A stretch of DNA of 64,000 nt, taken from contig JAMCPD010000011.1 in the NCBI GenBank assembly GCA_023379935.1, forward strand, positions 1 through 64,000. The letters run 5' to 3'. Shown here in pieces: positions 39,338 to 41,139 of this stretch. This DNA comes from Actinomycetota bacterium. Lineage in GTDB: Bacteria; Actinomycetota; Acidimicrobiia; Acidimicrobiales; JAMCPD01. The notes beneath the pieces were generated by a model that saw only the letters and a list, made by a program, of their open reading frames with translations, made no database searches and was not told the origin of the DNA. Both the position numbers and the translations under genes were made by a program. Position 1 is the stretch's first letter. Every line of letters starts with the position of its first letter.

Positions 39338-39407
39338 AAAATGGAGAAATTATGATAAAAGTGTTGACTTGTGTATCAAAATGGAGTAAAGTGGTCTGAA
39401 GTGGCGC
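39338..39407 (+). promoter_or_regulatory. MraZ operator: in-phase 10-bp repeats
   Basis: Immediately before the mraZ -10 box, three adjacent 10-mers read AAAATGGAGT (39378-39387), AAAGTGGTCT (39388-39397) and GAAGTGGCGC (39398-39407). Further copies in the same 10-bp phase are AAAGTGTTGA (39358-39367) and AAAATGGAGA (39338-39347), with weaker units between. The pattern AAAGTGK-N3, or TGGnn with 5-nt spacers, is the known binding pattern of MraZ, the repressor coded by the first gene. This supports autoregulation of the cluster. Confidence 0.8.
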
Positions 39408-39474: not shown

Positions 39475-39903
39475 ATGGCAGCAAGATTTTTCGGCCGTTA
39501 TGAGCACACCATAGACCCCAAGGGACGCTTAATCTTGCCGTCAAAGTACAGGGTGCACTTTCCCGGTAAGGGATTTTTAGGGTTTTACAAAGATGAAGGG
39601 TGTGATGAAGGGTGCTTAATGTTATGGCCGGAAGAAGAGTTTAATCTGCAGATGAATCGCTGGCGGGAGCAGTTGGAACGCGGCGGTGCTCTCGAACGCA
39701 ATGATGTACGAAAGAGTGCTTCTTCCATATACGAGGTGGATATTGATTCTACGCATGGAAGGGTTAATATCCCTTCTCAACTCAGAAAGAGTGCAAAGTT
39801 GCTGGGGGATGGTCCTGTTTCGGTTATGGTGTCTGGGATAGTGGATCATTTAGAGCTGTGGAATCCCAGTTTATGGGTTGAAAAGGTGGGTGTTATGGAG
39901 TAA
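39475..39903 (+). CDS. mraZ: Transcriptional regulator MraZ
   Basis: 142 residues, AbrB-like double-domain DNA-binding protein that forms ring-shaped oligomers and controls the dcw cluster. Both half-domains are clear: FFGRYEHTIDPKGRLILPSKYR and SSIYEVDIDSTHGRVNIPSQLRKSA (DxxGRxxxP motif in each). A 12-bp tandem duplication (39592-39615) in the first half gives KDEGCDEGC, which puts two cysteines four apart. The gene is the first of the division and wall cluster. Confidence 0.96.
   Translation: MAARFFGRYEHTIDPKGRLILPSKYRVHFPGKGFLGFYKDEGCDEGCLMLWPEEEFNLQMNRWREQLERGGALERNDVRKSASSIYEVDIDSTHGRVNIPSQLRKSAKLLGDGPVSVMVSGIVDHLELWNPSLWVEKVGVME
39592..39615 (+). repeat. 12-bp tandem duplication in mraZ
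   Basis: GATGAAGGGTGT and GATGAAGGGTGC in a row, coding DEGCDEGC. It falls within a loop ahead of the LMLWPEEEF segment of the first AbrB-like half. Confidence 0.85.
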
Positions 39904-39971
39904 GTCCTTGCCGGAATATATATGCGCATGCACCCTTGGCATTATCCGGTTTTAAAGCCTCTTTGCTTTTG

Positions 39972-40109
39972 GCTCATGCGCTGCCCTTCGATTTTGGTGG
40001 AAACTGTATCTCTCATCCCATAACCTCCTTTTCCACCCCGGCGAGAAAGCCGGTTCCCTTACGATCGAAGGGCAGCGGATGAGCTGAAGAAGACTGCCAA
40101 GGAGGTTAT
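39972..40109 (+). ncRNA. Structured leader RNA between mraZ and rsmH (mraW-motif candidate)
   Basis: A long stem pairs 39972-39992 with 40064-40084 (20 of 21 positions). Inside are hairpin GGTGGAA/TTCCACC (39996-40002 with 40031-40037), whose 28-nt loop ends in ATAACCTCCTT (40020-40030), and hairpin CCGGC/GCCGG (40038-40042 with 40049-40053). Downstream of the stem AAGGAGGTTAT (40099-40109) is perfectly complementary to that loop end, forming an 11-bp pseudoknot. The pairing joins an anti-Shine-Dalgarno-like sequence to a perfect Shine-Dalgarno sequence. An RNA motif named mraW is known upstream of this gene in other actinobacteria; I cannot confirm that this is a member. It probably controls rsmH and the downstream operon. 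Confidence 0.75.
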
Positions 40110-40155: not shown

Positions 40156-41139
40156 GTGACAATAGAGAAAAGAATGACAGCAGATAAAACAGAGACAGCC
40201 AACTTATATCACCAGCCAGTTATGGTTAAAGAGGTGGTATCTCTCTTGAATCCCGTGCCGAGAGGGACTGTAGTTGATGCAACCGTCGGCGGTGGCGGTC
40301 ACTCACTTGCGATACTTGAGTCGCGAGATGACATAAACATTTTAGGTCTGGACCATGATCCGGATGCTCTTTTAGCCGCAAGGAAAACACTAAGCAGGTT
40401 TGAGGGGCGGTTTCAACTTCTAGAGTCCAACTTTTCAAAGATCAAAGAACTTGGCCATCTCGGCTATCTATCCAAAATTAGTGGAATCTTGTTTGATCTA
40501 GGGGTAAGTGCCGCTCAACTGGCTTCTCCTGATCGCGGTTTTTCATATCACGTTGACGGCCCTTTGGATATGAGAATGAACCCTAAACAACAAAAGAGTG
40601 CCATGGATGTAGTGAACGCTTCGGACGAAAATATTCTTGCCGATTTAATTTCACTAAGCGGCGAAAGGCGTTTCGCGAGAAAAATTGCCAAGGCAATAGT
40701 GGCTTCACGACCACTCACAACCACTGCTGAGCTGGCAAGGGTTATAGCAATAGCGGTTCCGGTTGTAGGTCGGGGAAGAAGAAAAGCTCACCCGGCAAGA
40801 AAGGTATTCCAGGCTATAAGAATAGAGGTTAATGCTGAGCTTAAAGTATTACCGATGGCGTTGAAAGATGCCATCGATGTACTGATACCAGGCGGTAGAT
40901 GTCTAGTTATTTCTTATCATTCAGGTGAAGATCGCATTGTCAAACAGGAGTTCAAGAATGCCGTTTTAGGTTACTGCAGTTGCCCCACAGGTTTACCCTG
41001 CGTTTGTGGAGCTGTTGGTGAGGTTAGTTTACTCACTAAAAAGGCTTTGGTCCCGAGCTCTTTTGAGATAGAGAACAACCGCAAAGCCAGATCAGCCAAG
41101 TTGAGAGCTGTTGAGAAATTGGAGGTGATCTCAGGTTGA
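40156..41139 (+). CDS. rsmH: 16S rRNA (cytosine1402-N4)-methyltransferase
   Basis: AdoMet-dependent enzyme (older name MraW) that methylates N4 of C1402 in 16S rRNA. Landmarks: YHQPVMVKEVVSLL, AdoMet-binding VDATVGGGGHS, GLDHDPDAL, GILFDLGVSAAQLASPDRGFSYHVDGPLDMRM, and VFQAIRIEVNAEL. A GTG at 40156 and an ATG at 40174 are both possible starts; the ATG follows GAGAAAAGA, a weak ribosome site. It lies 253 bp after mraZ, separated by the structured leader RNA. It overlaps ftsL by 4 bp (TTGA). Confidence 0.96.
   Translation: MTIEKRMTADKTETANLYHQPVMVKEVVSLLNPVPRGTVVDATVGGGGHSLAILESRDDINILGLDHDPDALLAARKTLSRFEGRFQLLESNFSKIKELGHLGYLSKISGILFDLGVSAAQLASPDRGFSYHVDGPLDMRMNPKQQKSAMDVVNASDENILADLISLSGERRFARKIAKAIVASRPLTTTAELARVIAIAVPVVGRGRRKAHPARKVFQAIRIEVNAELKVLPMALKDAIDVLIPGGRCLVISYHSGEDRIVKQEFKNAVLGYCSCPTGLPCVCGAVGEVSLLTKKALVPSSFEIENNRKARSAKLRAVEKLEVISG

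What the first reader, a model, noticed from the sequence alone, without database searches (positions are those of the whole stretch)
39972..40109. Pseudoknotted leader RNA that joins an anti-Shine-Dalgarno loop to a Shine-Dalgarno sequence, between mraZ and rsmH
The gap has a 20-bp stem (39972-39992 with 40064-40084), two inner hairpins, and an 11-nt loop segment ATAACCTCCTT (40020-40030) that is perfectly complementary to AAGGAGGTTAT (40099-40109) outside the stem. The loop copies the 16S rRNA 3' end motif CCTCCTT and the partner is a perfect ribosome-binding sequence. Yet no start codon follows it at usable distance, so the pair seems to serve structure, ribosome or 30S capture, or attenuation. 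The downstream gene, RsmH, methylates 16S rRNA near the P site, so an autogenous loop sensing 30S subunits or rRNA state is conceivable. Known: an mraW RNA motif exists in actinobacteria upstream of this gene.
Basis: partly seen in the sequence, partly recalled or inferred. Interest (0 to 1): 0.85.

Follow-up and report, generated by a model that had tools for sequence, protein, structure and literature searches.

The report
Conserved RNA leader before rsmH
The RNA in front of this ribosome-modifying gene is a divergent copy of a previously uncatalogued, widely conserved folded RNA, which in most related bacteria hides the gene's start signal and displays what looks like a copy of the enzyme's own target site on the ribosome.

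Summary
The stem, the inner hairpins and the 11-nt loop/SD complement are really there (39972-40109), and the mraZ-rsmH setting is right. The key claim, an anti-SD/SD pseudoknot, is not supported. None of 76 related leaders has an equivalent pairing, nested folds pair the same SD, and no close relative exists in which to test it.

The surrounding structure proved more interesting. A covariance model built without the window finds it independently (50.9 bits, E 7e-8). It belongs to a structured leader RNA found before rsmH in at least 261 of 397 genomes of the order and in other orders of the class (apparently Acidimicrobiia). All 41 modelled pairs covary. It is not in Rfam 15 and does not match mraW RNA (RF01746).

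In 43 of 77 sampled leaders the rsmH start codon lies in the 3' arm of the stem. The hairpin-1 loop is strongly conserved as ACUCCGCCCG, even in AT-rich genomes. It matches 16S 1396-1405, which contains RsmH's target C1402, at 9 of 10 positions.

Best reading: a translational leader with feedback by RsmH through target-site mimicry. The leader is well supported; the feedback is inferred. The window copy is derived: its 3'-arm AUG opens a two-codon ORF and its loop has lost CCGCCC.

The parts
39972..40085 (+). Structured leader RNA, divergent member of an uncatalogued rsmH-leader family: outer stem plus two inner hairpins
   Evidence: Independent hit of models R1 (50.9 bits, E 7e-8) and R2 (54.7 bits, E 3.3e-8), both built without the window; same gene position in relatives
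39972..39992 (+). 5' arm of outer stem
   Evidence: Sequence; all outer-stem pairs covary in 70 leaders
40064..40084 (+). 3' arm of outer stem; holds SD-like AAGGG (40069-40073) and AUG 40079-40081, the position of the rsmH start in most relatives
39997..40037 (+). Hairpin 1: GGTGGAAA / TTTTCCACC around a long pyrimidine-rich loop; the equivalent loop in relatives carries CUCCGCCCG
40020..40030 (+). Anti-SD-like loop segment ATAACCTCCTT, particular to this genome; conserved CCGCCC absent
40038..40053 (+). Hairpin 2: CCGGC-GAGAAA-GCCGG; the loop matches the family's GAGAMAU loop
40079..40087 (+). Minimal ORF AUG AGC UGA starting in the 3' arm, where most relatives start rsmH
40099..40109 (+). 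SD-like AAGGAGGTTAT without a start codon at usable distance; paired in nested folds with 39958-39964 or 39931-39937; possibly a relic SD
40156..41139 (+). rsmH (mraW) ORF; GTG 40156 or ATG 40176 as start
   Evidence: PF01795 E 1.5e-99
39475..39903 (+). mraZ
   Evidence: PF02381 E 1.4e-17

Best explanation
39972-40085 is a divergent member of a conserved structured leader RNA of rsmH (shown). In the ancestral form a stem of about 20 bp holds the SD-like GRGGGG and the start codon of rsmH, or of a short ORF whose stop overlaps the rsmH start, in its 3' arm, so translation of rsmH is held down unless the stem opens (arrangement shown, effect inferred). The stem carries a hairpin whose loop displays ACUCCGCCCG, a near copy of 16S rRNA 1396-1405 around C1402, the base that RsmH methylates (resemblance shown). 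Most likely RsmH that is not occupied by 30S substrate binds this loop and keeps its own mRNA closed, a feedback by target-site mimicry (inferred). My estimates: family membership 0.95; translational control 0.75; RsmH feedback through the loop 0.4. The window copy is derived: rsmH starts 71-91 nt beyond the stem, the 3'-arm AUG reads AUG AGC UGA, and the loop has lost CCGCCC, so the feedback may be weakened or replaced there.
For: Independent CM hits of the window. 41 of 41 pairs with changes on both sides in 69 distinct leaders, 0 of 500 shuffles on every measure; the same direction on a plain MAFFT alignment of 20 (24 of 41 pairs, 0 of 500). Present in 261 of 397 order genomes; also in other orders of the class; always upstream of rsmH in the 77 leaders read. 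NTG start of rsmH inside the 3' arm in 43 of 77. In 6 further genomes the 3'-arm AUG opens a 6-19 codon ORF whose stop overlaps or abuts the rsmH start. CCGCCC in 62 of 76 leaders against 8.5 expected, and in 7 of 8 genomes below 56% GC against 0.33 expected. The loop consensus matches 16S 1396-1405 at 9 of 10 positions, the best of all decamers in the genome's own 16S; 33 of 20,000 shuffles do as well. Precedent: sgm and kgmB, which methylate G1405 in the same 16S segment, are negatively autoregulated at translation (PMC2791848).
Against: The stem looks too stable to need a protein to close it, so what opens it is unknown. The 9/10 match was noticed after the fact and rests on one short motif. 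The G1405-equivalent is A in 24% of leaders, and 14 of 76 lack exact CCGCCC. RsmH is known to act on assembled 30S, not free RNA (own knowledge). In the window the rsmH start is outside the stem and CCGCCC is absent.
Confidence: 0.5

Rival explanations
1. One reading: an anti-SD loop pseudoknotted to an SD outside the stem, sensing 30S subunits or sequestering the SD.
For: 11-nt perfect complement, 26 of 50,000 shuffles; the loop shares ACCUCCUUU with the 16S 3' end of this genome.
Against: No equivalent in 76 relatives; nested pairing of the same SD with probability about 0.97 in the tested segments; the energy gain is below usual pseudoknot penalties; the match to the 16S 3' end is weak (182 of 5,000 shuffles); no start codon for the SD.
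Confidence: 0.08
2. A fixed translational throttle or RNase III processing site: the long stem lowers rsmH translation or lets the mraZ-rsmH transcript be cut, and the loop binds some protein other than RsmH, or nothing.
For: Very long, stable, covarying stem with SD and AUG inside; no ligand is needed to hold it closed.
Against: The strong loop conservation, also in AT-rich genomes, asks for a specific partner.
Confidence: 0.3
3. Ligand- or antibiotic-responsive leader or attenuator with a leader peptide starting in the 5' arm (AUG 39976, MRCPSILVETVSLIP*).
For: The window and many relatives have AUG in the 5' arm, and in some the frame is open into rsmH.
Against: The 5'-arm AUG is missing in L005, L008, L018, L023, L026, L027 and L032, and the frame is closed in others; no terminator-like site in the gap.
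Confidence: 0.05
4. About the SD-like site only, compatible with the main reading: 40099-40105 is a relic ribosome-binding site of a former downstream rsmH start, and its match to the loop is coincidence.
For: A related family (L089, L090, L095) has AGGAGG/AAGGAGGTGAA directly before a downstream rsmH ATG.
Against: No relative close enough to show the step; 11 nt is long for coincidence.
Confidence: 0.5

Closest known systems
mraW RNA motif (Rfam RF01746; Weinberg et al. 2010, PMC2864571)
   Same: Structured RNA in the mraZ-rsmH gap of actinobacteria; long stem with a C/U-rich terminal loop
   Different: Single hairpin with loop ACUUCCCC; in Terrabacter L038 the rsmH match begins about 190 nt beyond it; no significant cross-hits in either direction; RF01746 hits in 150 phylum genomes all lay outside the window's class, R1 hits in 297 all inside it
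Translational autoregulation of the 16S G1405 methylases sgm and kgmB (PMC2791848; Kojic 1996 and Vajic 2004 cited there)
   Same: 16S rRNA methyltransferase acting on the same rRNA segment, negatively autoregulated at translation; a CCGCCC motif in those leaders is recalled from memory and not checked here
   Different: Antibiotic-resistance genes of producers; here a housekeeping gene with a large conserved branched leader
Ribosomal-protein leader RNAs that mimic rRNA sites (general kind, own knowledge)
   Same: Leader mimics the rRNA site of the gene's product and controls translation
   Different: Product is an enzyme, not a ribosomal protein; binding not shown

Membership tests
rsmH-leader family defined here (models R1, R2) | Significant hit to a model built without the window | tested here: met
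   50.9 bits, E 7e-8; 54.7 bits, E 3.3e-8; the reverse strand of the same palindromic stem scores only 33.9 and 35.6
rsmH-leader family defined here (models R1, R2) | Located between mraZ and rsmH | tested here: met
rsmH-leader family defined here (models R1, R2) | CUCCGCCC in the hairpin-1 loop (typical, not defining: exact CCGCCC is absent in 14 of 76 other members) | tested here: not met
   The window loop has ACCUCCUUU instead
rsmH-leader family defined here (models R1, R2) | rsmH start codon in the 3' arm (typical, not defining: 43 of 77 leaders) | tested here: not met
   AUG 40079 opens AUG AGC UGA
mraW RNA (RF01746) | Rfam model match above gathering score | tested here: not met
   No hit in the window at gathering, none listed at E up to 10
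mraW RNA (RF01746) | Single long hairpin with ACUUCCCC loop | tested here: not met
   The window has a branched structure and a different loop
   0 of 76 relatives at p<=0.05
Autogenous rRNA-mimic leader | Loop copies the product's rRNA target | tested here: inconclusive
   Family consensus matches 16S 1396-1405 at 9 of 10, a post hoc test; the window itself does not
Autogenous rRNA-mimic leader | Product binds the leader and represses translation | not testable with these tools
   Needs a binding assay and reporters

The most novel reading that the evidence does not exclude
A housekeeping rRNA methyltransferase carries, across a whole bacterial class, a structured leader that displays a copy of its own rRNA target site, is bound and possibly N4-methylated there by RsmH, and so couples RsmH output to the supply of unmethylated 30S subunits.
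Probability: 0.35. Interest if true: 0.85.

Novelty: new variant of a known kind. Interest (0 to 1): 0.6.

Why it matters
It adds a widespread, strongly covarying RNA family that Rfam lacks, at the head of the division and cell-wall cluster. It also makes a concrete question testable: whether RsmH senses its own substrate supply through a mimic of the C1402 site. If so, 16S decoding-site modification would be feedback-controlled by RNA mimicry in a housekeeping setting, so far known (to my knowledge) from antibiotic-producer methylases.

Tried and rejected
Rfam at gathering and at relaxed E-value: nothing relevant. DNA similarity of the leader in 397 order genomes: only itself. Closer relatives: none in the family; best RsmH identity 56% in the order sample and 55% in 395 class genomes, so covariation inside the window's own lineage cannot be tested. 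A first pass over loci did not flip minus-strand loci and was redone. Leader-peptide reading rejected (5'-arm AUG not conserved). Intrinsic terminator rejected. Kissing of the hairpin-1 CUCC with hairpin-2 GGAG considered: too little variation to test. The original sgm paper is not held.

Full report
What is in the window. Sequence reading confirms a 20-bp stem (39972-39992 with 40064-40084, one G-G mismatch), two inner hairpins, the loop segment ATAACCTCCTT (40020-40030) and its exact complement AAGGAGGTTAT (40099-40109). mraZ ends at 39903 and rsmH begins at GTG 40156 or ATG 40176; both genes are confirmed by Pfam. The region folds much better than shuffles (z -5.55).

A conserved RNA. In about 25 relatives the mraZ-rsmH gap is mostly 90-370 nt, and its folds show the same architecture; in other phyla the gap is mostly 0-30 nt. 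Twenty leaders without the window were aligned and modelled. 24 of 41 pairs covary, against 10.6 expected, and no shuffle reaches any of the five measures. This model finds the window at 39972-40085 with 50.9 bits, E 7e-8. A broader model of 59 leaders, again without the window, gives 54.7 bits. On 69 distinct leaders, window included, all 41 pairs have changes on both sides, with 448 such cells against 109 in shuffles; that alignment is fitted to the model and so leans towards it, but the one is not.

Distribution. The model hits 261 of 397 genomes of the order under strict filters. In a 297-genome phylum sample it hits only members of the same class. The broader model reaches further families of the class; several of those have a simpler form without hairpin 2 but keep CUCCGCCCG. 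Rfam's mraW RNA hits other lineages of the phylum and no genome of this class in a 150-genome sample. The two models do not significantly recognise each other's sequences.

Start codon in the stem. In 43 of 77 leaders the rsmH frame starts with NTG inside the 3' arm, directly after a GRGGGG SD-like run that pairs with the 5' arm. Of 18 other relatives whose 3'-arm AUG opens a different frame, six have a 6-19 codon ORF whose stop overlaps or abuts the rsmH start (ATGA, GTGA, TGATG). Where rsmH starts further downstream the arm AUG is often lost. This argues that the arm AUG is a real, occluded initiation site. In the window it reads AUG AGC UGA, so the arrangement is derived.

The loop. In 76 relatives the hairpin-1 loop is C-U-C-C-G-C-C-C at 88-97% per position. 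CCGCCC is exact in 62 against 8.5 expected, including 7 of 8 genomes with local GC below 56%. Compared with every decamer of the window genome's own 16S rRNA, the best match of the loop consensus is ACUCCGCCCG to ACACCGCCCG, 9 of 10, at E. coli positions 1396-1405 by standard numbering, which contains C1402, the base RsmH methylates. Shuffles reach this in 33 of 20,000 cases. The test was chosen after seeing the motif, so it is suggestive only. A functional precedent exists: the methylases Sgm and KgmB act on G1405 in the same segment and are negatively autoregulated at translation (PMC2791848). That their leaders contain CCGCCC is my recollection and was not checked.

The pseudoknot. For this one leader the 11-nt complement is unusual (26 of 50,000 shuffles). 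None of the 76 relatives has a comparable loop-to-downstream complement; mean lengths equal shuffled means. In nested folds 40099-40105 is almost fully paired, with 39958-39964 or 39931-39937 depending on the segment folded, and the pseudoknot gains 3.6-5.3 kcal/mol before any penalty. The SD-like site may be a relic: a related family has AGGAGG directly before a downstream rsmH start. With no relative above 56% RsmH identity, direct covariation of the pseudoknot cannot be tested.

Verdict. The finding led to a real, widely conserved and apparently uncatalogued leader RNA of rsmH, of which the window holds a derived copy. Translational control is well supported by anatomy; RsmH feedback by target-site mimicry is the best single mechanism but is inferred. 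The anti-SD/SD pseudoknot that gave the finding its title is probably a local feature or coincidence.

Noticed in passing
39382-39404 +: Three TGG direct repeats with 10-bp period (TGGAGTAAAGTGGTCTGAAGTGG) upstream of mraZ, like the MraZ-binding box of other bacteria (own knowledge); the bare pattern occurs twice in the window and is not rare by chance.
   Followed up: partly
L139, 3' end of 16S rRNA: The 16S 3' end ACCTCCTTTCTAAGGAG carries its own complement of the anti-SD a few bases downstream, so the precursor could pair anti-SD with AAGGAG.
   Followed up: no
L148, L149, L151, L152, L154: Families elsewhere in the class have a shorter leader without hairpin 2 that keeps the CUCCGCCCG loop.
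   Followed up: partly
L022, L004, L024, L077, L104, L128: Short ORFs starting in the leader stem whose stop overlaps or abuts the rsmH start.
   Followed up: yes
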